Assembly: GCA_018240405.1 (NCBI GenBank)
Contig: JAFEFW010000616.1
Coordinates: 53,692 to 117,691, forward strand
Origin: Pseudomonadota bacterium
GTDB taxonomy: Bacteria; Pseudomonadota; Alphaproteobacteria; Acetobacterales; Acetobacteraceae
DNA length: 64,000 bases
Reading direction: 5' to 3'
Under the pieces are notes generated by a model that saw nothing but the letters and a program-made list of their open reading frames with translations, did no database searches and was not told where the DNA came from. Positions 1 to 43,579 of the stretch are shown in pieces (the stretch's first letter is position 1; each line of letters opens with the position of its first letter). A program made the position numbers and the translations under genes.

Positions 1-2
1 TG

Positions 3-131
3 CGTCTCTCGCGCCAGGCCGATATCTCCAAAGCCCGTCGCGAACTCGGCTTTGAGCCGACCCCGGTGGAAGCGGCGATCGAAGATGCGTGGCAGGACTT
101 CGTCACGCGTGGCATGGCGGCGCGGGCATGA
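3..131 (+). CDS. NAD-dependent epimerase/dehydratase (HpnA-like), C-terminal end only
   Basis: Only the last 42 residues lie in the window; the reading frame is open from the left edge. The tail (DISKARRELGFEPTPVEAAI) resembles the C-terminus of extended short-chain dehydrogenases such as the hopanoid-associated HpnA epimerase and 3-beta-hydroxysteroid dehydrogenase-like enzymes, where a helix with KARRELGF/Y-x-P is usual. Its TGA overlaps the ATG of the sterol methyltransferase by 4 nt, so it is part of the same transcript. Given the neighbours it could act on the sterol nucleus (3-oxidation/C-4 decarboxylation type) or be HpnA-like. The catalytic part is not visible, so the function is an inference. 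Confidence 0.5.
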   Translation, partial: RLSRQADISKARRELGFEPTPVEAAIEDAWQDFVTRGMAARA

Positions 132-1162
132 GCGGGCGGCCGGCCGACCACGGAACGCCCGGCCTGCTGCGCTCTGCGCGTGGCACTGCGGCGCCGGACG
201 CAGTGTCGGCGTCCGTCGACCGCTACCACGCCCTCTATCAGGGTCAGGCGGACCAGCGCCGGCGCGACTATACATCCGTCGTTAACACATATTATGATCT
301 CGTTACGGATTTCTATGAGTATGGCTGGGGCCAGTCGTTCCATTTCGCGCCGCGTGCCCGCGGCGAAACGTTTCGTGAATCGATTCTGCGCCATGAGCAG
401 TGGCTTGCCCTGCGGCTGGGCCTTGTGCCTGGCAGCCAGGTGCTGGACGTCGGATGCGGCGTTGGCGGGCCGATGCGGACGATCGCGCGCTTTGCCGACT
501 GTCACATCACCGGACTCAACAACAACGACTATCAGGTCGAGCGTGCGCGCCTGCATAACCGCCGCGCCGGGCTGGACGCGCGCTGTACCGTTGTGAAGGG
601 CGACTTCATGGCTATGCCGTTTCCGGCAGACAGTTTCGATGCCGCGTACGCCATTGAGGCCACCGTTCACGCCCCGCGCCTTGCCGGCGCCTATGCGGAA
701 GTGGCGCGCGTCCTGAAACCCGGCGGGATGCTGGCCAGCTATGAGTGGGCCATGACGCCCCGCTTCGATCCGGCAGAGCCGGAACACCGCCGCCTGCGGG
801 CGGAGATCGAGTTCACCACCGGCATCGTCCACCTTTCGACTGCCGCCGAGGTCGAAGCCGCGGTCGTGGAGGCCGGGCTGGAGCTGCTGCAGTTCGAGGA
901 CAGATTCCTCGCCAGCGAGGTGTCCTGGCTCGAGCGGCTCGAACCGGCGAAGAACCCGTTCGCGTTGCGCCGCTCCTCGGGTATCGGCAAGCATTTCACC
1001 ACGGCCGCCGTCCGCGTGCTGGAGGCGTTGCGGGTTGCCCCGCGCGGAAGCACGACCGTCGCGCGGCTACTGGAGCAGAGTGGCGAGGTCGTGGTCGCGG
1101 CCGGACAGGCGGGCATTTTCACCCCCGGCCTGCTGGTCGTGGCGCGCAAGCCGGCGTCGTGA
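128..1162 (+). CDS. smt: Sterol C-24 methyltransferase (SMT/Erg6 family)
   Basis: A 344-residue SAM-dependent methyltransferase that should transfer a methyl group to C-24 of a sterol side chain. The sequence tracks yeast Erg6 over its whole length: YYDLVTDFYEYGWG (YEYGWG at 63-68, sterol-binding region I), LDVGCGVGGP (106-115, SAM site), NNNDYQ (131-136), IEATVHAP (176-183, Erg6 has IEATCHAP), VLKPGG, YEW and a C-terminal FTP-x-L-x-VARKP sterol-methyltransferase domain end. The first ~45 residues are not conserved. ATG at 128 was chosen because it forms the 4-nt overlap with the upstream stop; an in-frame ATG at 89 would overlap more. Its own stop overlaps the cyclase start (GTGA). Motif match makes SMT far more likely than a generic methyltransferase; the exact substrate and the number of methylations are unknown. 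Confidence 0.93.
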   Translation: MSGRPADHGTPGLLRSARGTAAPDAVSASVDRYHALYQGQADQRRRDYTSVVNTYYDLVTDFYEYGWGQSFHFAPRARGETFRESILRHEQWLALRLGLVPGSQVLDVGCGVGGPMRTIARFADCHITGLNNNDYQVERARLHNRRAGLDARCTVVKGDFMAMPFPADSFDAAYAIEATVHAPRLAGAYAEVARVLKPGGMLASYEWAMTPRFDPAEPEHRRLRAEIEFTTGIVHLSTAAEVEAAVVEAGLELLQFEDRFLASEVSWLERLEPAKNPFALRRSSGIGKHFTTAAVRVLEALRVAPRGSTTVARLLEQSGEVVVAAGQAGIFTPGLLVVARKPAS

Positions 1163-3159
1163 CGGGTTGGGCTGCGGCGGCGGCACGTGGGACGGAACGG
1201 CTGCTGGCGCAACAGGGTACGGCGGGCTGCTGGGAGGGCGAGGTCGTCTGGTGCCCGGTGATCACCGCGCAGGTGGTGCTGGCCTACGCGGTCATGCGGC
1301 GTCCGATCCCGGAAGACCGGCGGCGGCTGATCCTGCGGCATTTCGCGCGCACACGGCGCCCGGACGGCGGGTGGGGCCTGCATCCGGAGTCACACGCCTA
1401 CCTGTTCGTCACGACGCTGGTGTACGTCGCGGCCCGCCTGCTGGATGAACCGCCGGACGGTGCGCTGCTGCATGATGCGACCGTCTGGCTCCGGCGGCAC
1501 AAACAGGGCCTTGGTACGCTGCCAAGCTGGGGACGGTTCTGGCTGGTACTGCTGGGCCTATACGAGCGCGACCGGCTGACGGTCTGTCCGGCGGAGTTCT
1601 TCCTGCTGCCGTCATCCTTCCCGATTGCCGCGGACCGGCTGTATTGCCACACGCGCGCCATCTACCTTGGCATGGCGTACCTGACCGGGATCCGGCTGCA
1701 GGCGGATCTGGGGCCTCTGGGCGAGACGCTCCGGCAGGAGCTGGCGAGCTTTACGTGCCCCGGCCACCAGCCGCGCTACGAGATTGCGGCGACGGATGTC
1801 TACGTGCCGCCTGGCAGAGGCCTCCGGATAACGTATGAAATCATGCGCCGTCTCGGGCCGGTTTGGCACAAGGTGCCGGGCAGCGCTGGCTTGCGGCGGC
1901 GCGCGCTGGCGCGTTGCCTGTCCCGCATCCGGGCGGCGCAGATCGGTTCGGCCTATCAGGGTCTGTCGCCGGTGAATGGGCTGCTGAATACGCTCGCGCT
2001 TTGGGCGCATGATCCGAACGGGGACGACACGCAAGCCAGCATCGCCGGGCTGGAGGCGTGGTGCTGGCGGGACGAAGCGGATGGGCTGCGCTATGCGGGC
2101 GCCCGCTCGACGAGCTGGGACACCGCGTTCGCGTTGCAGGCGCTGGTCGAGGCCGGCGACATATCACTGGACCAGCATCCCGTCCTGCGCCGGGCCTATG
2201 CCGGTCTCGCCGCACTGCAGCTGACCACTCCGTCGGCCGTGCTCGAGGAAGGACGCCAGGACCCTGTTGGCGGCTGGTGCTTTGGCGAACCGGCGCATGG
2301 CTGGACCGTCAGCGACTGCGCCGCGGAAGCGGTCAGCGCCCTGCTGCTGTGTCACGGCGTTTCGCACCTGATTGCGCCGGAAGACCGCATGCCGGCTGGC
2401 CGGATCACCGCGGCGGTCGGCTTTCTCCTGGCGCGTCAGAATGATGACGGCGGCTTCGGCACCTATGAGCGGCGGCGGGGAGGCCCGCTTCTTGAGCGGC
2501 TGAACCCGTCGGAGATGTTCGGTGCCTGCATGACAGAGCGATCTTATATTGAGTGCTCGGCATCGGCGATCCGCGCGCTGCACCATATCATCGTATGCGC
2601 GCCTACGAGCGTTGACCCACCGATGCGCGTTGCCTGTCAGCAGGCAATCGGGCGCGCCCGGGATTTTCTTTTGAGTTCACAACGAACTGACGGTGCGTGG
2701 GCGGGCTTTTGGGGCATCAATTTCATTTACGCGACCGGCTTCGCCGTGGCGGCACTGCGTGATGCAGGTCTTCCGACGGATCATCCGTCCATTCAACACG
2801 CCGTCTCGTTTCTATGTATGACACAACGTGACGATGGCAGCTGGGGCGAACATTTCTCAGGCTGTCTGACGGGAAGCTATGTCGGCAATCCTACGGGCCT
2901 TGTCATCTCAACGAGTTGGGCTGTACTTGCCTTGTTGCGCGCCTCCGCTGACCTGCTGCCGGCGGCGCGGCGCGGGCTGGACTGGCTTGCCGCCCGGCAG
3001 CAGCCCGATGGCGATTGGCCGCGGGATTCCGTCAATGGCGTGTTCTTCGGCACCGCCATGCTGGATTACCGTTTGTACAACACCTACTTCCCGCTTTGGG
3101 CCCTCAGGCTCGGTAACCGGCGCGCGCTTTCCGTTGCAGTTGCACGAAGTGAGCCGTAA
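1159..3159 (+). CDS. osc: Oxidosqualene cyclase (lanosterol/cycloartenol synthase type)
   Basis: A 666-residue triterpene cyclase with repeated QW-like motifs (DGGWG, DGGFG, DGAWAGFWG, DGSWGEHF, DGDWP). The proton-donor motif is VSDCAAEA with D386. This is the VSDCTAE form of 2,3-oxidosqualene cyclases, not the DxDD form of squalene-hopene cyclases. NPSEMFGACM followed by IECSASAIRAL is another oxidosqualene-cyclase hallmark. Residues before the catalytic Asp are H380 (-6) and V384 (-2), a mix of cycloartenol-type His and lanosterol-type Val. GTG at 1159 is the start: it overlaps the SMT stop by 4 nt and gives a length usual for bacterial family members. It cyclises oxidosqualene made by the epoxidase encoded 1.5 kb downstream. 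The product (lanosterol, cycloartenol, parkeol or other) cannot be read from the sequence. Confidence 0.93.
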   Translation: MTGWAAAAARGTERLLAQQGTAGCWEGEVVWCPVITAQVVLAYAVMRRPIPEDRRRLILRHFARTRRPDGGWGLHPESHAYLFVTTLVYVAARLLDEPPDGALLHDATVWLRRHKQGLGTLPSWGRFWLVLLGLYERDRLTVCPAEFFLLPSSFPIAADRLYCHTRAIYLGMAYLTGIRLQADLGPLGETLRQELASFTCPGHQPRYEIAATDVYVPPGRGLRITYEIMRRLGPVWHKVPGSAGLRRRALARCLSRIRAAQIGSAYQGLSPVNGLLNTLALWAHDPNGDDTQASIAGLEAWCWRDEADGLRYAGARSTSWDTAFALQALVEAGDISLDQHPVLRRAYAGLAALQLTTPSAVLEEGRQDPVGGWCFGEPAHGWTVSDCAAEAVSALLLCHGVSHLIAPEDRMPAGRITAAVGFLLARQNDDGGFGTYERRRGGPLLERLNPSEMFGACMTERSYIECSASAIRALHHIIVCAPTSVDPPMRVACQQAIGRARDFLLSSQRTDGAWAGFWGINFIYATGFAVAALRDAGLPTDHPSIQHAVSFLCMTQRDDGSWGEHFSGCLTGSYVGNPTGLVISTSWAVLALLRASADLLPAARRGLDWLAARQQPDGDWPRDSVNGVFFGTAMLDYRLYNTYFPLWALRLGNRRALSVAVARSEP

Positions 3160-3168
3160 CGTAATCAA

Positions 3169-3897
3169 ATGGCTTCCACGGTCGTCGATGTTGAGCCGGT
3201 GCGCACCGCGGATACGCGTTTGCGGCCAGTGGCCGCGTTTCGCGCACTGCGGGATCTTGCGAGAAGCGAAGGCAAGGATCTGCATGCCGGCGTAGCGTTT
3301 CTGCGCGCGACTCAGGGCCGGTCCGCAATACGCGCGTTTGCCCGGTTCCGCGCCGGCGATGTCGGGCGGCGCATCCTCGATCGCCGTATCATCCTGCGTG
3401 ACCGCCTGCTGGAGCGTGATGCGCTGGAACGCCTGCCGGCGGAAAGTCTTGGGCGCAGTTATCTTGCGTTCATGGAAAGAGAAAACGTGGCTGTGCCCAG
3501 CCTGCTGGACCTGGCGCAGAGCTGCCCGGAGGTGGCGCGAACGGCGGAGGAGCGGCTGTTCGCGGAGCGTACCCATGTCATGCACGACCTTTGGCACGTC
3601 GTCGCCGGTTATGGCACGGAGCCGCTGGGCGAAGTCTGCATCCTGGCAATCCGCAGTGCGCAGATGCGCCATGTCGGTGTGTGGATTCTCTGCCTTGGCG
3701 GTATGCGGCATGTAGAGAATGATCTCGGCCGGGCACGGGCGCGAGCGGCGGTGCGGGAGGCCTTCACACGTGGTCGGCGCGCAGCTTGGCTGTACGGCGT
3801 CGACTGGGAGGCCATGCTGCCGCAGCCGCTGGAGGCGGTGCGTCGCGCGCTCAACCTGACGCCGCCGGTGCGGTACCAGTCGGCGATCGGCGCGTGA
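3169..3897 (+). CDS. Coq4-family protein, copy 1
   Basis: A 242-residue protein of the COQ4 family. Visible are the family's SLGRSYLAFM segment, the metal motif H139-D140-L-W-H143 and, 11 residues later, E155 in GYGTEPLGE, i.e. the HDxxHx(11)E signature. COQ4 acts in ubiquinone biosynthesis, where it is linked to oxidative decarboxylation of the ring. Nothing else from that pathway lies here, and a second Coq4 paralogue follows at once, so a role on a sterol or other lipid intermediate is a reasonable inference. The gene sits 9 nt behind the cyclase, and its stop overlaps the next gene by 4 nt (GTGA). Confidence 0.85.
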   Translation: MASTVVDVEPVRTADTRLRPVAAFRALRDLARSEGKDLHAGVAFLRATQGRSAIRAFARFRAGDVGRRILDRRIILRDRLLERDALERLPAESLGRSYLAFMERENVAVPSLLDLAQSCPEVARTAEERLFAERTHVMHDLWHVVAGYGTEPLGEVCILAIRSAQMRHVGVWILCLGGMRHVENDLGRARARAAVREAFTRGRRAAWLYGVDWEAMLPQPLEAVRRALNLTPPVRYQSAIGA

Positions 3898-4634
3898 GGC
3901 CAGCTGCCAACCGCATCCGGCCGCTTCAGGCACTTCGTGCCTTGCGTGCGCTCGCCCGATCCGGCGGCCAGGATTATGTGCAGGCCGCTACATTCATGAA
4001 TGCGACCGAGGGACGGTCCGGCCAGCGGGGCTTTGCCCGGTTCCGGCAAAGCCCGGACGGCGCGCGCTTGCTACGCGACCAACCCTCGCTGCGCGACGTC
4101 CTTGGCCAAGACCCCAGCGCTCTCGCGGCCTTGCCGTCCGCGTCGCTCGGCCGCGCCTACTACGACTTCATGACGGTGCACGGCTTCTCAGTCGAGGGCA
4201 TGGCCGAACTCGGGCAGGCCGGCGGCGCTCGGCCGATGGATGCGGACGAGCGGTGGTTCGCGGAGCGAATGAACACGCTGCACGATGTACGCCATGTCCT
4301 GGCTGGGTATGGCCAGGAACCGCTGGGCGAATTGTGCCTGCTGGCGTTCCGCTATGCCCAGGCGCGGCATCCGGGCATGGCGTTCTTCGCCATCACCTGG
4401 GGCCTGAAAATGGCACGCGAGCAGCCGGGGGTACCTGTTCTGGCAGCCGTGCGCGAAGGCTATCGCCGTGGCCGGGCGGCGGTCTGGCTCGACGACCTGC
4501 CGTGGGAGACGCTGCTGGCAGAGCCGTTATCCGCACTGCGCGAACGGCTGCGGATCACGCCGCCGAGCCTCTACGCGGGCATTGGCGCTCCGGCGCCGGC
4601 CACCGCCTTCGCCGGCGCGGAGCGCCCGGCATGA
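3894..4634 (+). CDS. Coq4-family protein, copy 2
   Basis: A 246-residue paralogue of the preceding gene. It keeps SLGRAYYDFM, the H130-D131-V-R-H134 metal motif and E146 in GYGQEPLGE. The start is GTG at 3894, inside the stop of copy 1. The two copies share the motif scaffold but differ elsewhere, so this is an old duplication; they could form a heteromer or act in sequence. The stop overlaps the epoxidase ATG by 4 nt. A function in ubiquinone synthesis is possible, but the context argues for a sterol-linked function; this is inference. Confidence 0.83.
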   Translation: MRPAANRIRPLQALRALRALARSGGQDYVQAATFMNATEGRSGQRGFARFRQSPDGARLLRDQPSLRDVLGQDPSALAALPSASLGRAYYDFMTVHGFSVEGMAELGQAGGARPMDADERWFAERMNTLHDVRHVLAGYGQEPLGELCLLAFRYAQARHPGMAFFAITWGLKMAREQPGVPVLAAVREGYRRGRAAVWLDDLPWETLLAEPLSALRERLRITPPSLYAGIGAPAPATAFAGAERPA

Positions 4635-5905
4635 GCACTGACGTCGATGTGGTGGTCGCCGGCGGCGGCGTCGCCGGCAGCACCGCCGCCGCGGCTTTGG
4701 CTGCTCTGGGCTGGTCGGTGCTGATCGTGGAGCCGGGACAGCATCCGGAGCGCCGGCTGGCCGGGGAATTGATCCACCCGGCCGGCGTCGCAGGACTGGA
4801 AACGCTCGGCTTGCTGGGCAGCGACTTCCAGGCCGCCGTACGGTTGCATGGCTTCACCGTTTTTCCGACAGCGTGCGAAACAGGCTGCATAGACCTGCCC
4901 TATCTGTCCGGGGCAGACCGGCCCGGTGTCGCTCTGTCGATGGACCATTCTGCGATCGGCAAGGCCTTACTGGGCGCCACGCTAGCCCACCCCCGGGTAA
5001 CGCTTGCGCAAGGCTGGCGCGTCGGCGGCCTAAATGCACCCGATGATGCGCCGATCGTCACGCTACGCCGGAATGCAGTGACTGAGACCGTCACCTGCCG
5101 GCTTGTCGTCGCCGCGGATGGCGCAGCGTCAGCGGTTCGCGGTTATGCCGGGCTGCATCACCGGCGGATCCGCAACGCCGTTCTCACCGGCTACCGGGTC
5201 CCAGCCGAGGCGCTGCCGCGCCCAGGCCGTGGACATGTTTTTACCGCCTGCGCCGGCCCCGTCCTGGCATACGCCATCAGCGGCGAGGACGCACGGGTGC
5301 TGTTCAACCGCCGGCTCGACGGGACCGTACGGGAGCCGCACGCGCCGCCGACGCTCGATGCACTGCCACCTGTCCTGCGGGAGACGGTTGCGCGCGCGAT
5401 CACAGCCCAATCAGGCCTGCGCTTCGTCAGCAGCGACGTCAGGGTCAGCGGCATAAGTCGCGGTCGCGTCGTCCTGGTCGGCGATGCCGGCGGGAGCTGC
5501 CACCCGATCAGTGCCAGCGGCATGACGATGGGGATCACGGACGCGGTTCACCTTGGCCAGGCTATTGCCGGATGCGGTGGAGATATCGCGCAGGCCCTTA
5601 CGATGTACGGCCGGGAACGCCGGTCCCGTCAGCGGGCGCGCGTGCTGCTGGCCGCGATGCTGCATGAGGTGCTGAGTGGTGACGCCACCACCATGGGGAG
5701 CATGCGAAGCGCTATGCATCGCTATTGGTTGGGCAGCGACCGGGCGCGCGCCGCCTCAATGGCACTGCTTGGGATGGATGATCTGCGGGTCGGCACCATC
5801 CTGCGTGAATTCGTCCACGTCGGGCTCGCAGGATCACTCAGTGCATTCGCCCGGTTTTCGCTGCCAATGATGCGGCATGTCGTTGGCACGATGCGGGTGC
5901 AATAG
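4631..5905 (+). CDS. sqe: Squalene monooxygenase (epoxidase) homologue
   Basis: A 424-residue FAD-dependent monooxygenase with the Rossmann GGGVAG at 11-16. RRLAGELIHPAG follows (GELIHP 45-50), matching the GELLQPGG segment of squalene epoxidases and its following LxxLGL. Further on come the VVAADGAASAVR dinucleotide-fold segment and GDAGG (284-288) with CHPISASGMTMG, the counterpart of GDA-x-x-x-RHPLTGGGMTVA. HVFTACAGPVLAYAIS also matches the epoxidase substrate region. It should convert squalene to 2,3-oxidosqualene, the cyclase substrate. The protein lacks the N-terminal membrane anchor of eukaryotic enzymes. A UbiH-like hydroxylase is the main alternative; the GEL-P-G motif and the neighbouring oxidosqualene cyclase favour epoxidase. 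ATG at 4631 overlaps the upstream stop. Confidence 0.85.
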   Translation: MSTDVDVVVAGGGVAGSTAAAALAALGWSVLIVEPGQHPERRLAGELIHPAGVAGLETLGLLGSDFQAAVRLHGFTVFPTACETGCIDLPYLSGADRPGVALSMDHSAIGKALLGATLAHPRVTLAQGWRVGGLNAPDDAPIVTLRRNAVTETVTCRLVVAADGAASAVRGYAGLHHRRIRNAVLTGYRVPAEALPRPGRGHVFTACAGPVLAYAISGEDARVLFNRRLDGTVREPHAPPTLDALPPVLRETVARAITAQSGLRFVSSDVRVSGISRGRVVLVGDAGGSCHPISASGMTMGITDAVHLGQAIAGCGGDIAQALTMYGRERRSRQRARVLLAAMLHEVLSGDATTMGSMRSAMHRYWLGSDRARAASMALLGMDDLRVGTILREFVHVGLAGSLSAFARFSLPMMRHVVGTMRVQ

Positions 5906-5908
5906 GCC

Positions 5909-7225
5909 ATGGGAATGCCCCTGATGCAGCCTCGCTTCGATGTCGTGATCGCCGGCGCCGGCCCCGGCGGCGCGACTTGCGCCTGGTATCTTGCACGCGC
6001 GGGCCTGCGCGTGGCCCTCCTCGACCGGCATACGTTTCCGCGCGACAAGGTTTGCGGCGATGCGATCTGCAGCCGCGCGCAGATGCATCTTTCCCGCATG
6101 GGCGTATTGCAAGAGATCATGGCCAATGATGAGGGGCATCCGGCTGCCATCGGCGGCATGGTGAGCCCCGGCGGCGTGGTTGCCATCGGTGATTCCAGCG
6201 GGCACATCGCCTCGTCACCGGTCATCGCGATCCGCCGGATCGACATGGACCACCGGATCGTGGTGGCAGCGCAAACCGCCGGCGCGACATTGCTGGAACG
6301 CTTCGACGTCGCCGACGCAACGCTGGACCGGACGGCGGGCACATGGACGGTCCTGTCGGCGGCGGGTGCGACGGTGCAGGGCCGCGTCCTGGTCGCGGCC
6401 GACGGCGCGAACTCGCGGCTCGCCCGGCGCCTCGGCGTCGTTGACGGCCCGGCCGAGGCGGTCTGCAGCCGCGCCTATATCGCCGCGCCAAGCACATCAT
6501 TTGGCTGTGATGGCGTGGCGTTCTACCGCCGCGACCTGCTGCCCGGCTACTGTGCCTTGTTCCGGGAGTCGCGTGAGGAGCTGAACTTCTGCCTCTACAT
6601 CATTCCGGGCGGCGGCGCCGGCACGGGGGATCTTCGTGCGATGCACGAGTCGGTGCTGCGGGACGATCCGTTTGTCAGCCGTGCGGTGGGTCCACGCGCC
6701 GAAATTGGCGCCATGAAGGGTGCGCCCCTGCGGTTGGGTGGCATCCAGCGCAGCTATGCCGACCATCTGATTGTGCTGGGCGACGCTGCGGGCCAGATCG
6801 ACCCGCTGACCGGTGAGGGCATCCAGTACGCCATGGATGCCGCGGAAATCGCCGCCGAGACGCTGCAGTCCCTGCTTCCCCCGGGCCGGCTGACCGAGGC
6901 CGATCTGAGCGTGTACCATGCCCGCTGGTATCGCGCTTTCGGTCGGGATTTCGCCTGGAGCGCCCGAATCGCCGCGTTGTGCGCCCGCCACCCTGGACTG
7001 CTCGACACCGGTGCGCGAGCGCTGCGAGATCATGGCGCACCGCTGCTGGGGCAGTGGGCGGAGGTGATGACGGGCGCACGACCGAAGACGCATTTCCTGC
7101 GCCCAGCCATCGTCATGCCGATGCTGCAGTCCCTGCTGCGGCACACGTTCCGGCTGCGTGGCGAACCGCCGGCCGGGCCATCGCAGGAGCCGGACGCGAC
7201 GGCCATCCTGCGTCGCGCAGCCTGA
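5909..7225 (+). CDS. Geranylgeranyl reductase family FAD-dependent oxidoreductase
   Basis: A 438-residue flavoprotein of the geranylgeranyl-reductase/ChlP family: GAGPGG at 16-21, the family's cysteine motif KVCGDAICSRA with C51-G52-D53, VLVAADGANSRLAR, and GDAAGQIDPLTGEGI for FAD ribityl binding. Members reduce isolated prenyl double bonds or act as halogenases/monooxygenases. Here it lies 3 nt behind the epoxidase and ahead of a P450, so reduction of a sterol side-chain or nuclear double bond is a plausible but unproven task. A second in-frame ATG at 5924 is an alternative start. Confidence 0.8.
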   Translation: MGMPLMQPRFDVVIAGAGPGGATCAWYLARAGLRVALLDRHTFPRDKVCGDAICSRAQMHLSRMGVLQEIMANDEGHPAAIGGMVSPGGVVAIGDSSGHIASSPVIAIRRIDMDHRIVVAAQTAGATLLERFDVADATLDRTAGTWTVLSAAGATVQGRVLVAADGANSRLARRLGVVDGPAEAVCSRAYIAAPSTSFGCDGVAFYRRDLLPGYCALFRESREELNFCLYIIPGGGAGTGDLRAMHESVLRDDPFVSRAVGPRAEIGAMKGAPLRLGGIQRSYADHLIVLGDAAGQIDPLTGEGIQYAMDAAEIAAETLQSLLPPGRLTEADLSVYHARWYRAFGRDFAWSARIAALCARHPGLLDTGARALRDHGAPLLGQWAEVMTGARPKTHFLRPAIVMPMLQSLLRHTFRLRGEPPAGPSQEPDATAILRRAA

Positions 7226-7233
7226 AGGCGGCC

Positions 7234-8679
7234 ATGGCGGCGTCGGCAACGCTTGGTCTGCTGCAGCTTACAAGCGAGGCCGTGGCGAACGCTGTCCAGG
7301 ATCGGATTTCCATCGTCGGCAAGTGCCTGCCGCCGTCGCCGCCGATCCGCCATCGTTGGCTGGGGCACCTGCACGACATCCGCACCGAGGGATTCGTTGC
7401 GTTTCATGCTCGCTGCGTGCGGGAATACGGACCGCTGGTGCTGCTGCGGTTCGGCCCGCCCGCGCTTGGCCGGCGCTTTCTGCTGGTGGCCGACCCTGAT
7501 GTCGCTTGGCAGACACTGACGCAGGATCTGCAGCGCAACTTTCCCATCGGTACGGGACCTCGGCTCGCCTTTGGCGATGACGCCGTGTTCTGCACCGCGG
7601 CCGCCGATCCGGTCCACGAACGGCGGCGTGCCCTTATTCGGCGCCACGTGACGCCAGACATGCTGCGCCGCCATGTGGCACAGATGGATGCAGTGTGGGG
7701 ACCGGCGGTGGAGACACTCGTCTCGATCCCGGCCGGCTGTGGCTCAATCGAGCGCTTCAACATCAATCCGGCCATATTGTTTGCCACACAAGAGGCGGCC
7801 ATCCGCTGCTGGATGAGCGTGTCGCCGGGTCCCAACGAGGTGCTGTCGACGCTGGAGCGTTATTTCGACACCGGCAATCTGCTGAGCGAAATTCTTTTCA
7901 ACACCTGGTTCTTTCTGCATGCGAAGCGGCGGGTCGGGGCGCTTCGCACGGCCTATGCGCCGCTCCTGGCACGAGCACTGGACATGCTGGCGGACGGCGA
8001 CGATGCAGCGCCGTTTATTGCCAGTTCGCTGCGGGAACTGGGTTGGGATACCGCCAGGGCGCGGGACGACGCTGCCTACCGGGCCGCTTTATTGGCGGAC
8101 CTGCCGATCTATCAGCATCTGTTCACCGTGATGCTGCCGTCGATGGGCTCTACAGGAGGAACGATCCTGTTCCTCTTGCGCCAACTCGCGGCTGACGTCT
8201 CCCTGCAGGATGATCTCCGGCGTGAACTGGCAGCCTGCGACCTGGCCATGGACCCTTGCCCACCACCGCTCACCGGGCAGGCGATTCGCGAGTGTCTGCG
8301 GCTGTACCCGCAGGCTGCCGGCATTACCCGTTACCTGACGACCGCACGCACCTATGGCGGGTACTTCGTGCCGAAAGGCTCCTACACCTTCACGCACCTG
8401 CACACGCTGCATCGGCATGCCTGCCGCCACGCGGAGCCGGATCGATTCAATTCCGCCAGGGAGGCCGGGCCGCCTGGAAGCTGGGCCGGCTTCTCCATCG
8501 GGCCGCTGTCCTGCACCGGCCGCAGTTTTGCCGAGTTGCATATCGCAGTGGCGCTGAAGGCCATACTGACACGCTATCGCCTCACCGGCGCAGAGCCGGA
8601 TCCGGACGCCCATAATGATTATCAGGGATCGGTGACGTTGCAGCCGCAACCGTTTTCCATCGGGTTCACGTTGCCATGA
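7234..8679 (+). CDS. Cytochrome P450 with non-canonical I-helix
   Basis: A 481-residue P450. The K-helix ExxR is E353-C-L-R356, the PERF-like segment is EPDRFN, and the heme loop is F420-S-I-G-P-L-S-C427-T-G, with C427 as the thiolate ligand. Two usual elements are missing. The heme-loop Arg (FxxGxRxCxG) is Leu or Ser, and the I-helix carries SMGSTGGT rather than AGx(D/E)T, as in CYP7/CYP8-type enzymes. It does not show the GQHTS or YD motifs of CYP51. In this operon it may hydroxylate or rearrange a sterol; C-14 demethylation cannot be claimed. ATG at 7234 sits 8 nt behind the reductase gene; its stop overlaps the next gene by 4 nt. Confidence 0.87.
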   Translation: MAASATLGLLQLTSEAVANAVQDRISIVGKCLPPSPPIRHRWLGHLHDIRTEGFVAFHARCVREYGPLVLLRFGPPALGRRFLLVADPDVAWQTLTQDLQRNFPIGTGPRLAFGDDAVFCTAAADPVHERRRALIRRHVTPDMLRRHVAQMDAVWGPAVETLVSIPAGCGSIERFNINPAILFATQEAAIRCWMSVSPGPNEVLSTLERYFDTGNLLSEILFNTWFFLHAKRRVGALRTAYAPLLARALDMLADGDDAAPFIASSLRELGWDTARARDDAAYRAALLADLPIYQHLFTVMLPSMGSTGGTILFLLRQLAADVSLQDDLRRELAACDLAMDPCPPPLTGQAIRECLRLYPQAAGITRYLTTARTYGGYFVPKGSYTFTHLHTLHRHACRHAEPDRFNSAREAGPPGSWAGFSIGPLSCTGRSFAELHIAVALKAILTRYRLTGAEPDPDAHNDYQGSVTLQPQPFSIGFTLP

Positions 8680-9710
8680 CGGTCGTCCTGCTGGTTGACG
8701 GCACGCGGGTATTGGCGGAGCGGAGTGAGGCACCGTTCGTCCGGTTCAACATCAACCTGCCGGCCCTGGAAATCCGCCTGATCTCCGGTTTTGCGGCTCC
8801 GGCCGACCTGACCTCCTCCGGCGATACGCGCCGCCTTGGGGTCCTGTTGCGTGGCGCCCGGTGGATCCGCGGCGAAGAGGTCTTTGACGTCCCGCTGGAT
8901 TCGCCCGGTTTCGTCGACGGCTTCCACCCTGTGGAAAATCACGGAAATGGGTCAGTGCGATGGACCTCCGGCGATGCGGGACTGCCGCCGCAGGCCATAC
9001 CAGCCTGGAGTGGTCCTGTTGTCCTTGAATTGAACATCAAGGAATGGGACGGCAGTTCGCTGAATACGATGCAGAGCCCGGAGGCTTCGCTCCTGAGCCG
9101 TTTCGAAAGTCTGGGCGAAGACTGCGACTTCAGCCTGACGCAACGTCAATACCTCGTTGAGCCGCCGCTATCGCTGTATCGCTGGGGCGGCGCGCCTGTC
9201 GGCGACCTGATTCGCGGTCTGCTATGCCGCTTTGACGGACTCGGCGACCCTGAAACGACCGAACTGATCTGGTTTCATGAACAGTACTTCCTGCGCACGC
9301 CGTTTGTGTCGATGCACACCGGATGCGTGAAGGAACAGGACGATGCCGGCCGCCAGGAACTGCTTGAGGTCGGGCGGTCCACCTTGCGAATCCTGCGGCG
9401 GAAACTATTGAAGGATATTTCCAGGGGCGATCGGATATTCGTGTTCAAGAGCTTGTCCGGAACAATCGATCAAACTCAGATGTTGGCCCTGCATGGCGCA
9501 CTCCGCGAACTTGGCCCGTCAGCGCTGCTGTGCGTGCAGCGGACGGATGATCCACACCGTGCCGGGACGGCGGAACGCATTGCTCCCGGGCTTTATGGCG
9601 GGTACCTGGACCGGTTCCTGTCCTCGACCGACTCGCGCGAGGTGCGGCTTGCCATATCGGCCGGCTGGCTCGCCGTGTGTGCCGCCACACTCGCGCTGCA
9701 CACCGAATGA
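8676..9710 (+). CDS. Uncharacterised two-domain protein in the sterol operon
   Basis: 344 residues, not assignable to an enzyme class from sequence alone. Residues ~30-130 show RRLGV, then GFHPVE and RWTSGDAGLP. This pattern resembles a beta-rich module that in Acetobacteraceae-type bacteria is often attached to Hint-domain or glycosyltransferase-like proteins (RRRLGV...GWH..E...RWTdGdA). From ~145 on, SLGEDCDFSLTQRQY followed by LYRWGGAP matches a widespread domain of unknown function with the SLGENCEFG..QR...LfRW signature. There is no signal peptide. Its coupling by 4-nt overlaps to both the P450 and the ACP indicates a role in the same pathway. Confidence 0.7.
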   Translation: MTVVLLVDGTRVLAERSEAPFVRFNINLPALEIRLISGFAAPADLTSSGDTRRLGVLLRGARWIRGEEVFDVPLDSPGFVDGFHPVENHGNGSVRWTSGDAGLPPQAIPAWSGPVVLELNIKEWDGSSLNTMQSPEASLLSRFESLGEDCDFSLTQRQYLVEPPLSLYRWGGAPVGDLIRGLLCRFDGLGDPETTELIWFHEQYFLRTPFVSMHTGCVKEQDDAGRQELLEVGRSTLRILRRKLLKDISRGDRIFVFKSLSGTIDQTQMLALHGALRELGPSALLCVQRTDDPHRAGTAERIAPGLYGGYLDRFLSSTDSREVRLAISAGWLAVCAATLALHTE

Positions 9711-9976
9711 GCGGAGAGAGCCGCGCTGTGCCACAGGATCCTGAGCCATACGGTGCCCTTGAGGCCGTTGCCGCAACGGTACGGCGGCTGTGCAAGTCGC
9801 CGAACCTGGTCGTAACGCCGGAAACGAGGCTGGCTGACTTGCCGGGCTTGGACAGCTTGCGCGCATTGCACCTTGTGGCAACGCTGGAGGATCAGTTCGG
9901 TGTTGAAATCGACGTGGCGGCTCTTGGTGAGCTTCGACGTGTCAGCGACATTCTCCACTGGCTTGAAAAGCGGTAA
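9707..9976 (+). CDS. Acyl carrier protein
   Basis: An 89-residue carrier protein. LADLPGLDSLRALHLVATLE contains the DSL phosphopantetheine attachment site with S50, followed by EDQFGVEID, the usual helix III region of ACPs. It starts by a 4-nt overlap with the preceding gene and ends the operon. No ketosynthase or adenylation enzyme is seen nearby, so it must be loaded by an enzyme encoded elsewhere. A dedicated ACP at the end of a sterol operon suggests transfer or modification of an acyl group; that is inference. Confidence 0.85.
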   Translation: MSGESRAVPQDPEPYGALEAVAATVRRLCKSPNLVVTPETRLADLPGLDSLRALHLVATLEDQFGVEIDVAALGELRRVSDILHWLEKR

Positions 9977-10138: not shown

Positions 10139-13100
10139 TCACCGGCGCACCGGCGTCACCGGCACGTCGGTCAGATTGATCCGGAATTGCGGAAGCACAT
10201 CCTTGAACGAGCCGGTGAGGGTTTCGTAGTACGCCGGATTTGCAGCGAGCGGGAACCGCCAGGCCCGGACCGGCGCACCGGTAGGCCCGTACTGCACGAA
10301 CAACTCAGCTTCGGGGATCAGGTAGCCGCCGGACGTCACGCGTGGATTGGGCCCGACGATATCGTGCGCGGTATAAGTCGCGCCTTCGCGCTTCAGCATC
10401 TGCTCGAGGTTGTTGCGTATCCACTCGTTGTATTTCCTCGGATGAGCGACGAAGTTACGCGGGTCCGCGGTGGCGAGCATCTGGCCGGGGCCCGGTCGTG
10501 GCGTGGCGGCGTGCGGCACCCTGTGACCCCGGCCGTGGGTCATGCCGGTCAGCGCATCAAACATTGTGTTCGTCGCCATCGGAAAGTTCCGCGGGCCAGG
10601 ATAGGAGCCACCAGGACGCGGCTGTACGAAAGCGGAAAGGTTGGCGCCTGGCGCATCAACCAGGAAGGCTGGGTCGTTAACCCCGTAGGTGACGAGCGAG
10701 GATGCCGGCACGCCTCCGGGCCGGCTTGGGTAGTAGGCAAGGCCCCACTCGCCGCTTGGCATGCGCACCCAGACGCTGCCCTCGCCACCATAGGGAAGCA
10801 TGGACGTGCCGCGCTGCGCGACCGCGGTGCCCCATTGCTGCGTCAACGATTGCTCAAACGACTGCGGCACCAGCGGTCCGACGTAAGCAATGTCAGGTGG
10901 CGGTGCGGTCAGCAGACCGTATGGCTGTGGGCCAGGACCCAGCATGTAGGGCGGCCGGAACCCAGCCTCCCACAGCGGCGGCGGGGCCTGTGGAAGACCC
11001 TGCGGGAGATTGGCGCCTGCCAGGACCAGGGTGCTATCGCTGCCCGCGATGGCGGTGACGGGCATTCCTGAAGCCGCGTCGATCAGCAATGGTGAGGCCG
11101 TGGCGGCTGGCTGGGCCACAGGGGCCGCGGGTAGCGCAAGCTCCGGCCAGACACCGAACTGAACAGGAAGCTTTGACTGCGGCGAAATCATCGCCCAACC
11201 GCGCTGGCCGAATGCGACTGAGCTGGGGTAATTCGGATGTGCGATATCGAAACGGGCACCTTGCCCCAGGCTGCTGTCACCAGCCAGCTCCGCGGGCCAG
11301 ACGCCCTCCTCCAGCACGACCGACGCATTGTTTCCGGCGCGGCCAATCACCCGGTAGCCAGCCTGGGTGACCCGGATCGTTACGCCCTCTGACTCAATGG
11401 CAAGATCGACGACGCCCTTGCTGACCGTGCGGGCCACGACGCCATCCGGTAGCGTGGCGCCGGCTTCGAGCGCCGCAACAGCCAGAGCGCCTTTGGATTG
11501 CAGTCCGCCGAGGACTTTACCGGCGACCGGCAGCGCCGCACCAAGTCCAGCGCCGAGTAGCCCGGCCACGGCGATGTCTCGACCGGAATAAGCGGTCCCT
11601 TTCCACCACCCTTGCAATGTAGGGTCGGCGAAGTCCGTGTACGACGTATAAAGATTCGATGCCAGCATGGGGCCTGTCGCAACCACGAGCCCGGTTGTGG
11701 CACCAAACAGTGCCATACCCCCAAGCGTCACCGGCTCAAAATAGATGCCGAGCCCGAAGGTCGCGAGAGTCAGCGCAAGCGTGACACCAGCGAAGATTTG
11801 ACCGCGATGCTCGGCCTTGGCGACCCCTTCGGCCCAACTTTCATAGCTGATCAGCCCTGCATCATAGGCCTTGCCTAACTGCCGCGCGTGCTCCGGCGCT
11901 CCGCCGGTTGCCAGGTTTTGATAGCCCTGCATCCTCGCGGCGTCGATGATGTATAACTTGTTCCAAGCCGAGGGATTTTCTTTGTCTTCCTTCTCGGTTT
12001 TCTCGATGCTCTCGGACATCCTTTCATACTCGCTTTTCGACCTCGGATGGGTCGCGCGCCATACGACATCCGCCTTCCGGCAGGCTGCAAATTCACCCTT
12101 GAGGAAGCTGCTGAGTTCGCCGCGAACCGGCTCCGCTAGTTCAGAAAAGGGTTTCGCCACGATTGCCGCAAGTTCGGCTTCGATCTTGCGCAAATCGGCA
12201 TCGACCTGTTCGAGCGCTTGCGCCGCGATCTTCGCGTGGTCTTGCGTGGCGAGATCGCGCGCCGCTTTCAGCCTGGCTTTCGCGGCGTCGACTTTGCTGA
12301 TTGTTGCAGCGAGTATATTCAGCTCCCCGCTCATCTGCTGGAGGGATTGATCGAGCGTGCCGTCAATCGACTTGTCAACAATTGCGATCGTTAGCAGGCC
12401 GTTCAGTGTTGGCAGCGGGCGTCCGCGTAGCGAAAAGCTCAGCAGGCTTCCGGTCCCTCCTGCCTTGCCTTCCGGATCGACCAACGCGATTGTCACGGAA
12501 TCGTTCATGATGAACGGGTTGGCGTTGAGCCAGCGGTAAAGAATTTCGTCCTGGATTCGCGCGCTCATGTCAGCGGCTGTGCCACCCGCCTGGGCTCGTG
12601 CGAAGACATCGCGCAGCCACTGGTCACCGCCGGAACGCTTGCTCTGGGTAACGCGCGGCTGAAAAAGGTCGTCGACCGTAACAACAACTTCCGGCTTTAC
12701 CAGCTCATTCTCCACTGGTGGCGCCTGTCCGCTCGCGACAGTGTCCGTGCGACGCCGCGCCGCGGCGTTGAGCGCGTTCCAGTCAGAGGGCGAAAGACGG
12801 TCGCGGATCGCTGCATAGGCGTCCAATGGATCGGCTGTGCCGGCCACAGGCACGATGACGAATGAAGCATTCTTGCCGGTTGCCGTGCTGGGTCTGGCTG
12901 GGGCGAGCTGCACCAGAGCCGCACCGCCTCGCTGCTGTACGACATGGGTCGCTTCATGGGCCATCAGCCGCATGTCGTGGGGCGATGCACCGGGCCCAAG
13001 CCAGATGTCGCTGCCATGAGTGAAGGCGCGGGCATCGAGGTCACGTGCCGCCGCGTGTGCCGCCTCATCGTCATGGACACGGACCTGGCTGAGATCGGCT

Positions 13101-13657
13101 CCAAGCTGATTCTCCAGGGTGGTCCGCATGACCGGGTCAAGCGGTGTGCCGGGACCCTTCAAAGCGATGGCCTGACTCGCTGTCGGAGTCATCAAAGCGC
13201 CGGGCGCCTGCGACTCGGCGGTGTCGCGTTGAATGGTATTGGCTTTTGCCAGCAGACCTGGTGTGACCGGTGAAATCCTTGTCGCCGCCGGCCTCCCTGC
13301 AGCCACGTGGTCCGAAACGGCATTCGCCTCGCTCGCGAACCGGCTGGCTTCGGCGCCGGAGGAGGCCTGCCGTTGGACAATGGGGCTGTTTGCTGCCGGT
13401 GAGGCGTCGGTGACCCTGTCGCCAGGGATAGCCGACGTATCTGGCCGGGTCAGTCTGTCCTGTCGCGACGCAAACCTGGCCGGCTCAAAGCGGCTGGCCG
13501 TGCTCGTCGGCAGGGCAGGGCCGTCGGCCGGACGATAGCGGGTGGCGGTTGAGGCGAATGACGAGGTTAGGAGGTTGGGTGCAGACCAGGTTGCTGCCGC
13601 CGGTGGAGCCGATGCCGGCTGACGGGCGCGTTCGATTTCCAGAGGGCGCTTGGTCAT
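10139..13657 (-). CDS. Giant DUF4157 (HEATH) protein, probable toxin/effector
   Basis: 1172 residues. The first ~150 are disordered and rich in Ala/Ser/Pro/Arg. Next comes a DUF4157 (eCIS-core-like) domain: PLDPVMRTTLENQLGADLSQ, VRVHDDEAAHAAARDLDARA, then H234-E-A-T-H238-VVQQ, a zinc-protease-like HExxH motif. A coiled-coil stretch lies near 460-560, and hydrophobic segments near 650-730 look like a pre-toxin transmembrane region. The C-terminal ~300 residues (proline-rich linker, then a folded tail ending FRINLTDVPVTPVRR) are unrecognised and may carry the activity. The start is ATG at 13657 with AGAGGAGG 14 nt upstream; an in-frame TTG at 13714 is an alternative. No secretion apparatus or immunity gene is evident beside it. 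It converges on the sterol operon. Confidence 0.8.
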   Translation of the reverse strand: MTKRPLEIERARQPASAPPAAATWSAPNLLTSSFASTATRYRPADGPALPTSTASRFEPARFASRQDRLTRPDTSAIPGDRVTDASPAANSPIVQRQASSGAEASRFASEANAVSDHVAAGRPAATRISPVTPGLLAKANTIQRDTAESQAPGALMTPTASQAIALKGPGTPLDPVMRTTLENQLGADLSQVRVHDDEAAHAAARDLDARAFTHGSDIWLGPGASPHDMRLMAHEATHVVQQRGGAALVQLAPARPSTATGKNASFVIVPVAGTADPLDAYAAIRDRLSPSDWNALNAAARRRTDTVASGQAPPVENELVKPEVVVTVDDLFQPRVTQSKRSGGDQWLRDVFARAQAGGTAADMSARIQDEILYRWLNANPFIMNDSVTIALVDPEGKAGGTGSLLSFSLRGRPLPTLNGLLTIAIVDKSIDGTLDQSLQQMSGELNILAATISKVDAAKARLKAARDLATQDHAKIAAQALEQVDADLRKIEAELAAIVAKPFSELAEPVRGELSSFLKGEFAACRKADVVWRATHPRSKSEYERMSESIEKTEKEDKENPSAWNKLYIIDAARMQGYQNLATGGAPEHARQLGKAYDAGLISYESWAEGVAKAEHRGQIFAGVTLALTLATFGLGIYFEPVTLGGMALFGATTGLVVATGPMLASNLYTSYTDFADPTLQGWWKGTAYSGRDIAVAGLLGAGLGAALPVAGKVLGGLQSKGALAVAALEAGATLPDGVVARTVSKGVVDLAIESEGVTIRVTQAGYRVIGRAGNNASVVLEEGVWPAELAGDSSLGQGARFDIAHPNYPSSVAFGQRGWAMISPQSKLPVQFGVWPELALPAAPVAQPAATASPLLIDAASGMPVTAIAGSDSTLVLAGANLPQGLPQAPPPLWEAGFRPPYMLGPGPQPYGLLTAPPPDIAYVGPLVPQSFEQSLTQQWGTAVAQRGTSMLPYGGEGSVWVRMPSGEWGLAYYPSRPGGVPASSLVTYGVNDPAFLVDAPGANLSAFVQPRPGGSYPGPRNFPMATNTMFDALTGMTHGRGHRVPHAATPRPGPGQMLATADPRNFVAHPRKYNEWIRNNLEQMLKREGATYTAHDIVGPNPRVTSGGYLIPEAELFVQYGPTGAPVRAWRFPLAANPAYYETLTGSFKDVLPQFRINLTDVPVTPVRR

Positions 13658-13842
13658 TGATTGCAAAGGCAGCCTCCTCTTTGACCGCGCATGACACGCG
13701 CTCAAGACGAGCAATCAGACGCTGGGCGACCCGCACAGCCAGGATCAGTTTACCATCGCCAGGCTGGTCACGTGAAACGAAAACCAGACGGCTCAGGACT
13801 GGCTGTCGTGATTCGAAATAGTTGCACAATCTGTCTAGTCCG

Positions 13843-42718: not shown

Positions 42719-43579
42719 AGGCTGTTATGGATTGGTCGGCGAGTAAACCCCAAGTTCCGGCCTATGACAGATGCCCGGAAGCGCTACCCCTCTGACGTCA
42801 GCGACGAAGAGTGGGCGCTGGTTGCGCCCTACCTGACGCTGCTGCCGCAGGAGGCTGGCCAGCGCCAACATGCCCTGCGCGAGGTCTTCAACGGCCTGCG
42901 CTACATCATCAAGACCGGCGCGCCGTGGCGGTGGATGCCCAATGACCTGCCGCCATGGGCGGCGGTCTATCAGCAGGCGCAGCGCTGGCTGGCCGCCGGC
43001 TGCTTTGAGGCGCTGGCTGAGGATCTGCGTGCCGTGTTGCGCCAACTGGCCGGGCGTGCCGCCGAGCCGAGTGCGGCCATCCTCGACAGCCGCACCCTGC
43101 GCTCAACGCCGGAAAGCGGCCCACGGGCGGGCTACGACGGCGCCAAACGCAAGCGTGGCTCGAAGCTGCACATGGCGGTCGATACCCTTGGTCATCTGCT
43201 GGCTTTGCATGTCACGCCTGCCAATGCCGATGACCGCGCCGAGGTCGGGCGGCTGGCACAGGCGGTGCAGGAGGCCACCGGCGACAGCGTCGATATCGCC
43301 TTCGTCGATGCCGGCTACAATGGTCCTAATGCTGCGGCGGCGGCCCAGGCACAGGGCATTGAACTGGTGGTGGTGAAGCTTCCTGAGGCGAAGAAGGGCT
43401 TTGTCTTGCTACCCCGACGCTGGGTGATCGAACGTTCCTTCGGCTGGACGACACGGTTTCGCCGGTTGGTCAGAGATTACGAGCGCTATGCCAGCACACT
43501 CGCCGGGCTGCACTTCGTCGCCTTCGTCTGTCTTATGCTTCAACAGGCCGCTCGACTTGTGGTCTGTTCATAACAGCCT
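42719..43579 (+). mobile_element. IS5-family insertion sequence, complete
   Basis: An 861-bp element with 11-bp perfect terminal inverted repeats (AGGCTGTTATG at 42719-42729 and its complement at 43569-43579). It is flanked by direct CTAG copies at 42715-42718 and 43580-43583. It holds a single transposase gene and appears intact. Size, ends and short target duplication fit the IS5 family, IS427-like group. It interrupts the chemoreceptor gene. Confidence 0.92.
42764..43573 (+). CDS. IS5-family transposase
   Basis: 269 residues in one frame. The N-terminal part SDEEWALVAPYLTLLP followed by LREVFNGLRYIIKTGAPWRW is the DUF4096-type start seen in IS427-like elements. The DDE triad lies in AILDSRTLRS, IAFVDAGYNG and WVIERSFGWTTRFRRL. 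No frameshift is needed for expression. It should cut and move the surrounding element. Confidence 0.93.
   Translation: MTDARKRYPSDVSDEEWALVAPYLTLLPQEAGQRQHALREVFNGLRYIIKTGAPWRWMPNDLPPWAAVYQQAQRWLAAGCFEALAEDLRAVLRQLAGRAAEPSAAILDSRTLRSTPESGPRAGYDGAKRKRGSKLHMAVDTLGHLLALHVTPANADDRAEVGRLAQAVQEATGDSVDIAFVDAGYNGPNAAAAAQAQGIELVVVKLPEAKKGFVLLPRRWVIERSFGWTTRFRRLVRDYERYASTLAGLHFVAFVCLMLQQAARLVVCS

What the first reader, a model, noticed from the sequence alone, without database searches (positions are those of the whole stretch)
3..9976. A compact bacterial operon for C-24 alkylated sterols with several unassigned extra enzymes
Seen: SMT, oxidosqualene cyclase, two Coq4 proteins, squalene epoxidase homologue, GGR-family reductase, P450, a two-domain unknown and an ACP, all on one strand. 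Most are joined by 4-nt overlaps (128, 1159, 3894, 4631, 8676, 9707) and the remaining gaps are 3-9 nt. Established: epoxidase and cyclase are the core of sterol synthesis, which is rare in bacteria, and SMT-encoded side-chain alkylation is rarer still and is used as a eukaryote biomarker. Inference: the operon makes a modified, perhaps acylated or side-chain-reduced, C-24 alkyl sterol by a route not described as such. None of the known C-4 demethylation genes is visible.
Basis: partly seen in the sequence, partly recalled or inferred. Interest (0 to 1): 0.92.

Follow-up and report, generated by a model that had tools for sequence, protein, structure and literature searches.

The report
Bacterial alkyl-sterol operon with conjugation module
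An alphaproteobacterium carries a compact gene cluster that looks able to build sterols with extra side-chain carbons, a eukaryote hallmark, plus unusual extra enzymes that may attach an acid to the sterol; the core is of a known kind, the extras are new and testable.

Summary
The genes and junctions are real. The operon is longer than the window shows: an adenylation gene, a Rieske oxygenase and an SDR lie directly upstream. The core is syntenic in Acidisphaera sp.; all 12 genes recur, on two contigs, in Rhodopila sp. RYN_443. Of 398 family genomes, 2 have an OSC-class cyclase. Bacterial SMT/OSC/SdmAB clusters are published (PMC10070321), so the core is a known kind. The extras differ: a GGR outside the Bsr clade; a P450 without the CYP51 motif and no C-14 reductase found; Coq4 confined to the operon; and an adenylation domain, ACP and ORF8 whose C-domain resembles papain-like proteins, with invariant Cys and His, a module seen elsewhere in the family. 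Best reading: a C-4-demethylated, C-24-alkylated sterol, perhaps conjugated through an ACP-bound acid (inference). No HpnC/HpnD-type squalene synthase or hopene cyclase was found in this draft assembly. No product has been measured.

The parts
1..131 (+). 3' end of SDR gene (SdmB-type); whole gene G000:C573:52797-53822; upstream of it Rieske SdmA-type (C573:51731-52810) and adenylation domain (C573:50109-51728), all outside the window
   Evidence: NCBIfam best hits SdmB 292.8 bits, SdmA 371.5 bits
128..1162 (+). sterol C-24 methyltransferase (SMT, Erg6-type)
   Evidence: PF08498 3.5e-18; signatures YEYGWGQSFHF, LDVGCGVGGP, IEATVH, YEWAMT
1159..3159 (+). oxidosqualene cyclase
   Evidence: TIGR03463 726 bits; aligned to 1w6k with the VSDC motif conserved; tree
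3169..3897 (+). Coq4-family protein a
   Evidence: PF05019 1.9e-20; HDLWH-x11-E; 6e12 match 3.8e-9
3894..4634 (+). Coq4-family protein b (GTG start), 46% identical to a
   Evidence: PF05019 4.5e-17; HDVRH-x11-E and paralogy
4631..5905 (+). squalene epoxidase homologue
   Evidence: PF08491 2.4e-17; homologue in 29 of 32 OSC loci
5909..7225 (+). GGR-superfamily FAD reductase, clade separate from Bsr
   Evidence: TIGR02032 167.7 bits; motif and tree
7234..8679 (+). cytochrome P450, not CYP51-like
   Evidence: PF00067 3.8e-23; motif comparison
8676..9710 (+). ORF8: N-terminal beta-rich domain plus C-terminal domain resembling papain-like proteins, with invariant Cys150 and His214; candidate acyl-transfer enzyme
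9707..9976 (+). acyl/peptidyl carrier protein with DSL phosphopantetheine site; last gene of the operon
   Evidence: PF00550 5.4e-11; motif

Best explanation
A 12-gene operon of an Acetobacteraceae bacterium for a C-4-demethylated, C-24-alkylated sterol, probably further modified. Proposed route: the epoxidase makes 2,3-oxidosqualene; OSC makes a lanosterol-type sterol; SdmA/SdmB remove C-4 methyl(s); SMT adds carbon(s) at C-24; the GGR enzyme reduces a double bond of the side chain; the P450 and the two Coq4 proteins make a further oxidative change that is not canonical C-14 demethylation. The adenylation domain loads a carboxylic acid, probably not an alpha-amino acid, on the ACP, and ORF8 moves it through Cys150 to the sterol. 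Shown here: gene content, order, motifs, conservation. Inferred: every reaction. My estimates: sterol core with C-4 demethylation 0.85; alkylation 0.8; GGR as side-chain reductase 0.55; conjugation by A-domain/ACP/ORF8 0.4; a specific role for Coq4/P450 under 0.3. The confidence below is for the sterol core with alkylation.
For: OSC motif kept. OSC clade sister to Minicystis rosea, 95/91, a published cholesterol maker (PMC12004948, parts 1-2 of 7 read). OSC, SdmA, SdmB 44-52% identical to Calothrix NIES-4105 genes shown by others to make lanosterol and remove both C-4 methyls (PMC10202945, passages). SMT signatures and PF08498. Same core order in Acidisphaera sp.; all 12 genes in Rhodopila sp. 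RYN_443, on two contigs. In the three genomes Coq4 lies only in the operon; 8 of 398 family genomes have a Coq4. No PF01222 reductase in the three genomes, present in 2 of 2 myxobacterial comparators; Acidisphaera has one P450, the operon's. A-domain, ORF8 and ACP are kept with the sterol genes at 52-66% identity; a C-A-PCP-ORF8 fusion exists.
Against: No lipid data exist. No HpnC/HpnD-type squalene synthase and no SHC were found in this assembly, so squalene supply is unproven; a gap in a 681-contig draft is my guess, not shown. OSC is under the TIGR03463 cut-off (726 vs 851); SdmA and SdmB are under their cut-offs of 600 and SdmB leads HpnA by little (292.8 vs 254.0); the epoxidase's best NCBIfam model is UbiH-type, under its cut-off, and no NCBIfam model named for SMT is among the 25 shown of 34 hits. 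The core order occurs without ORF8/ACP in Acidisphaera. The ORF8 module also occurs in relatives without an OSC, so it is not sterol-specific. RYN_443's operon is split and its GGR is frame-broken; Acidisphaera's Coq4 is frame-broken: assembly error or decay.
Confidence: 0.75

Rival explanations
1. The operon makes free alkyl sterol only; the A-domain/ACP/ORF8 genes are hitch-hikers of a family module that acts on something else (for example a glycan or surface lipid).
For: Module present in 8 relatives that show no OSC-class cyclase; no ORF8 or ACP at the Acidisphaera operon.
Against: The A-domain gene and ORF8/ACP bracket the sterol genes in one apparent transcription unit, and all three are kept with the sterol genes in RYN_443 at 52-66% identity.
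Confidence: 0.4
2. The P450 is a diverged sterol C-14 demethylase and the sterol is fully demethylated, with an unrecognised C-14 reductase.
For: Only P450 in the Acidisphaera genome; P450s of five of seven other P450-bearing OSC loci looked at have the CYP51-type I-helix, so a C-14 demethylase is usual in such loci.
Against: No CYP51 I-helix motif; tblastn similarity to those five only over about the last 130 residues at 27-31%; no PF01222 reductase.
Confidence: 0.25
3. The A-domain activates an oxidised sterol side-chain acid made by the P450, so the sterol itself rides on the ACP and ORF8 releases or transfers it.
For: A-domain has Gly where the Asp that holds the alpha-amino group would be, in both Rhodopila-type copies; P450 nearby.
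Against: Five related standalone A-domains near ORF8 relatives in genomes without OSC also lack Asp at that column, so the trait is not sterol-specific.
Confidence: 0.15
4. The cyclase makes a non-sterol triterpenoid and the methyltransferase a non-sterol product.
For: Score below the curated OSC cut-off.
Against: OSC motif, SdmA/SdmB partners, SMT signatures, tree.
Confidence: 0.07

Closest known systems
Bacterial SMT/OSC/SdmAB gene clusters of uncultured bacteria (Brown et al. 2023, PMC10070321)
   Same: SMT with OSC and sdmA/sdmB in bacterial clusters; side-chain alkylation proposed de novo
   Different: The main text has no mention of Coq4, acyl carrier, adenylation, P450, proteobacteria, Rhodopila or Acetobacter (word searches; supplements not seen)
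Calothrix sp. NIES-4105 sterol cluster (Lee et al. 2023, PMC10202945; here L108)
   Same: OSC, SdmA, SdmB, epoxidase, the same GGR clade (51-53%) next to an SMT-like gene
   Different: Has a P450 with the CYP51-type I-helix; its genome has no PF08498 match; tblastn found no Coq4, ORF8, ACP or A-domain in the 22-kb locus
Bsr, bacterial C-24 sterol reductase (PMC12004948)
   Same: GGR-superfamily flavoprotein in a sterol cluster
   Different: Window GGR lacks YxWxFP and falls in a separate 100/100 clade
Coq4 (oxidative decarboxylase of ubiquinone precursors in human cells; review PMC11495197, passages)
   Same: Pfam family and HDxxH-x11-E motif
   Different: Located only in a sterol operon in these three genomes
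Papain-like cysteine peptidase fold proteins
   Same: C-domain of ORF8 matches giant-virus proteins so named; invariant Cys and His
   Different: Found with or fused to carrier and adenylation domains; no Pfam match

Membership tests
Oxidosqualene cyclase (OSC) | Catalytic (V/I)xDC motif instead of SHC DxDD (recalled) | tested here: met
   WTVSDCAAE aligned to human lanosterol synthase WIVSDCTAE
Oxidosqualene cyclase (OSC) | Over curated cut-off of TIGR03463 | tested here: not met
   726.4 vs 851 bits; TIGR01787 met, 424.8 vs 322.7
Sterol C-24 methyltransferase (SMT) | PF08498 C-terminal domain and four signature regions (regions recalled) | tested here: met
   65.9 vs 21.7 bits; motifs
Sterol C-24 methyltransferase (SMT) | Methylates a sterol | not testable with these tools
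   needs assay
SdmA (C-4 methylsterol Rieske oxygenase) | Best NCBIfam hit, Rieske ligands, partner SdmB, OSC neighbourhood | tested here: met
   371.5 bits vs next 37.0; CxH...CxxH; SdmA/SdmB pair in 17 of 32 OSC loci
SdmA/SdmB | Equivalog cut-off 600 bits | tested here: not met
   371.5 and 292.8; SdmB margin over HpnA is small, 292.8 vs 254.0
Bsr C-24 sterol reductase | YxWxFP motif and Bsr clade | tested here: not met
   GYCALFR at that place; separate clade; the Bsr clade was taken from Minicystis and cluster-located genes, the S. amylolyticus sequence was not in hand
CYP51 sterol 14-alpha-demethylase | I-helix GQHTS-type motif (recalled) and full-length similarity | tested here: not met
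   absent in the window P450 and its two orthologues; present in L091, L094, L101, L108 and, as GHHTSS, L102; a second pattern, for the B' region, matched none of the proteins tested and told nothing
Coq4 | PF05019 and HDxxH-x11-E (motif recalled) | tested here: met
NRPS amino-acid adenylation domain | Asp235 equivalent (numbering recalled) and TIGR01733 cut-off | tested here: not met
   Gly at the column in both Rhodopila-type copies; 258 vs 317.4 bits; PF00501 is met
Papain-like fold enzyme (ORF8 C-domain) | Structural match and Cys/His pair | tested here: inconclusive
   BFVD E 6.4e-5, TMt 0.62, TMq 0.40; Cys150 and His214 in 12 of 12; no PDB match at E<=0.001; no Pfam match but one PycTM hit at 0.033 in one of 12 members; side-chain geometry not seen

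The most novel reading that the evidence does not exclude
The operon encodes a first genetic route for sterol conjugation in a sterol-making bacterium: a carboxylic acid is adenylated, held on a dedicated ACP and transferred by a papain-fold, LRAT-like Cys/His acyltransferase (ORF8) to a C-24-alkylated, 14-methyl-retaining sterol, with a Coq4 pair acting as sterol oxidative decarboxylases beside a non-CYP51 P450 and an SMT-linked second family of GGR sterol reductases.
Probability: 0.2. Interest if true: 0.85.

Novelty: new variant of a known kind. Interest (0 to 1): 0.62.

Why it matters
C-24-alkylated steranes are read as eukaryote fossils; an alphaproteobacterial family with an alkyl-sterol operon widens the possible bacterial sources. 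[quoted passage not shown] this operon offers named candidate genes. It also marks a second GGR clade to test for reduction of alkylated side chains, and a setting where Coq4 can be studied outside ubiquinone synthesis.

Tried and rejected
Bsr identity for the GGR: rejected on motif and tree. CYP51 identity for the P450: rejected on motif. Missing C-4 demethylation: rejected, genes upstream. Ubiquinone role for Coq4: no other Coq4 in the three genomes that hold the operon; weakened, not excluded. SHC identity of the cyclase: rejected. GGR/SMT co-occurrence as proof of function: window-type GGR is in 5 of 32 OSC genomes and PF08498 in 12 of 32, 4 genomes having both; 8 genomes have PF08498 without this GGR; three of the genomes are one family, so suggestive only. 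In the Myxococcales genome G458 no other operon homologue was found in the 20 kb around its GGR. Terminator and promoter scan at the 3' end gave nothing. PDB fold search of ORF8 gave nothing at E<=0.001. Plasmid search for ORF8: 5 records, none covering 80%. The literature search was badly framed and is not used; one search added nothing beyond PMC10202945; one search gave only an abstract.

Rows dropped: GGR tree left out L125 and L134 (pieces of a frame-broken gene), L133, and L080, L081, L084, L090, L104, L108 (same genes as loci kept). OSC tree holds the window and 31 of 32 loci; L105, whose match is split, fell out by the coverage filter. The SMT tree of 7 rows has no starred fork and is not used. 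The OSC scan used two short peptide patterns, so its 32 loci are no census of bacterial OSCs; L091 was not held as a genome, so the 32 genomes are the window's and 31 others.
Full report
OBSERVATION. The nine genes, their strand and their junctions are as described. The window is G000:C573:53692-117691 of a 7.37-Mb draft in 681 contigs, 97.6% complete. Reading upstream on the contig adds three genes on the same strand: an adenylation-domain protein (539 aa), a Rieske protein (359 aa from a GTG that I chose, 2 nt after it; the mechanical ORF is longer) and an SDR (341 aa, 14-nt overlap) that ends at window 131 and overlaps the SMT start by 4 nt. 555 bases separate the first gene from a large ORF on the other strand. 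Downstream of the ACP the largest ORF is on the other strand. So I count 12 genes in the unit.

WHOSE GENOME. The second OSC found in the family (G323) lies on a contig of 32,090 bases, as does the Acidisphaera sp. CP_BM_RX_R8_15 record JAFAYM010000176.1 with the same genes at the same identities; I take them as one. Acidisphaera and Rhodopila are labelled Acetobacteraceae.

CORE PATHWAY. The cyclase keeps the OSC motif VSDC and aligns over most of its length to human lanosterol synthase; TIGR03463 scores it 726 bits, below its cut-off of 851, while TIGR01787 is passed. Of 398 family genomes searched, G000 and G323 score over 700 bits; the next best is 281 bits, as expected for hopene cyclases. 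In a tree of 32 OSCs the three Acetobacteraceae form a 100/100 clade, sister to Minicystis rosea at 95/91. Minicystis makes cholesterol (PMC12004948, parts 1 and 2 of 7 read, plus word searches). The SMT carries PF08498 and four signature regions that I know from Erg6 (recalled). The Rieske protein hits SdmA at 371.5 bits with the next family at 37.0; the SDR hits SdmB at 292.8 against HpnA 254.0; both are under their cut-offs of 600. SdmA- and SdmB-type genes occur together in 17 of the 32 OSC loci, Acidisphaera included. The Calothrix NIES-4105 relatives (L108; OSC 44%, SdmA 51%, SdmB 52%) have been expressed by others: the OSC gave lanosterol and SdmAB removed both C-4 methyls (PMC10202945, passages). 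An epoxidase homologue is in 29 of 32 OSC loci; the window's own scores best on a UbiH-type NCBIfam model, under its cut-off, and has the Pfam SE domain.

CONSERVATION. Acidisphaera has Rieske-SDR-SMT-OSC-Coq4-epoxidase-GGR-P450 in the same order at 48-69% identity; upstream of it are a repeat/Hint-type protein (by eye) and a distant adenylation protein (26%), with no ORF8 or ACP match. Rhodopila sp. RYN_443 has A-domain, Rieske, SDR, SMT on one contig (66-75%) and OSC, Coq4a, Coq4b, epoxidase, GGR, P450, ORF8, ACP on another (52-72%). So all 12 genes are kept, but there the unit is split between SMT and OSC.

GGR. A GGR-family C-24 sterol reductase, Bsr, is published (PMC12004948). The window GGR is not in that clade: it joins Acidisphaera, Calothrix NIES-4105 and an SMT-bearing myxobacterium in a 100/100 clade, while GGRs from sterol clusters of other cyanobacteria and a myxobacterium, with one from Minicystis, fall in another (98/95); the YxWxFP motif is GYCALFR here. 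Strong matches (43% or more) occur in 5 of 32 OSC genomes; 4 of these have PF08498 and the fifth has an SMT-like gene next to the GGR. Hence my proposal that it reduces the alkylated side chain; 8 genomes have PF08498 without this GGR, so the link is loose.

P450 AND COQ4. Of seven other OSC loci whose P450s I looked at, five (L091, L094, L101, L102, L108) show a CYP51-type I-helix (GQHTS or GHHTS), two (L084; L081, a fragment) do not; the window P450 and its two orthologues do not, and resemble the five only over about the last 130 residues. No ERG4/ERG24-type reductase was found in the three genomes, while both myxobacterial comparators have it. Acidisphaera has exactly one P450 match; the window's genome has 10, and whether one of the other nine is a CYP51 was not tested beyond the few fetched. 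So canonical C-14 demethylation is unlikely in Acidisphaera and unproven in the window's genome. Coq4 is rare in the family (8 of 398) and in the three genomes occurs only in the operon; both window copies keep HDxxH-x11-E. Human COQ4 is reported to be an oxidative decarboxylase (review PMC11495197, passages). A sterol role is inference.

CONJUGATION MODULE. ORF8 has two domains that also occur apart; 108 of 300 genomes of the order match one or both. Ten near-full-length relatives from 8 other genomes were examined in the DNA around them, from 2.9 to 19.9 kb: 8 have an adenylation domain and/or carrier protein there; L070 and L014 do not. All 8 genomes were and none has an OSC-class score. 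One relative is a single protein C-A-PCP-ORF8 (Pfam on L073); L072 looks alike by length and tblastn only. The AlphaFold model (pLDDT 87, pTM 0.67) had no PDB match at E<=0.001, but the four viral-library matches under that limit are all giant-virus proteins named putative papain-like cysteine peptidase (best E 6.4e-5, TMt 0.62). Cys150 and His214 are invariant in 12 of 12. Papain-fold acyltransferases of lipids exist (LRAT: recalled; LRAT-like family named in the abstract of PMC3142127, seen in the listing). The operon's A-domain has Gly where amino-acid-activating domains have an Asp (numbering recalled); five related standalone ones also lack Asp at that column, though one has it a column earlier, while the two fused ones have it.

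GAPS. G000 shows one CrtB-type and one distant PF00494 protein and no second cyclase, although each of the 13 same-genus genomes listed has a cyclase in the SHC score range. I guess that an hpn locus is missing from the assembly; loss cannot be excluded. Frame breaks: Acidisphaera Coq4, RYN_443 GGR.

PRIOR ART. Functional bacterial SMTs and SMT/OSC/sdmAB clusters: PMC10070321 (parts 1 and 2 of 7 read, plus word searches). Sponge-symbiont clusters with ERG24, CYP51 and LSS: PMC9531527 (passages). One alphaproteobacterial OSC, Methyloceanibacter, in PMC4919349 (passages). I found no report of sterol genes in Rhodopila or of Coq4 with an OSC in searches (no paper; 31 papers, 15 listed, passages of two read; 3 papers, passages of one read); one hopanoid paper says the alphaproteobacteria it studied do not make sterols (PMC12583986, passages). 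The library lacks most subscription journals, and no supplements were seen.

VERDICT. A sterol operon by gene content, a new member of a known kind in its core and a new variant in its extras. Interest lies in the extras and in the host family.

Noticed in passing
window 10139-13714 (-): 1191-aa ORF next to the operon with an eCIS_core domain (PF13699, 8.5e-24); such domains are linked with extracellular contractile injection systems (recalled). Not examined further.
   Followed up: partly
G000 as a whole (C651, C608): No squalene-hopene cyclase and no HpnC/HpnD found in this assembly, although each of 13 listed same-genus genomes has a cyclase.
   Followed up: partly
L073:9280-13845 (-) and L072:9812-14311 (-): ORF8-type domain at the C-terminus of long NRPS-like ORFs; perhaps an unrecognised terminal domain after the carrier protein (Pfam on L073 only).
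   Followed up: partly
L108:16328-17206: SMT-like methyltransferase directly downstream of a window-type GGR in the Calothrix NIES-4105 sterol cluster; the genome has no PF08498 match.
   Followed up: no
window 42764-43573 (+): ORF that reads like an IS-type transposase by eye, not tested.
   Followed up: no
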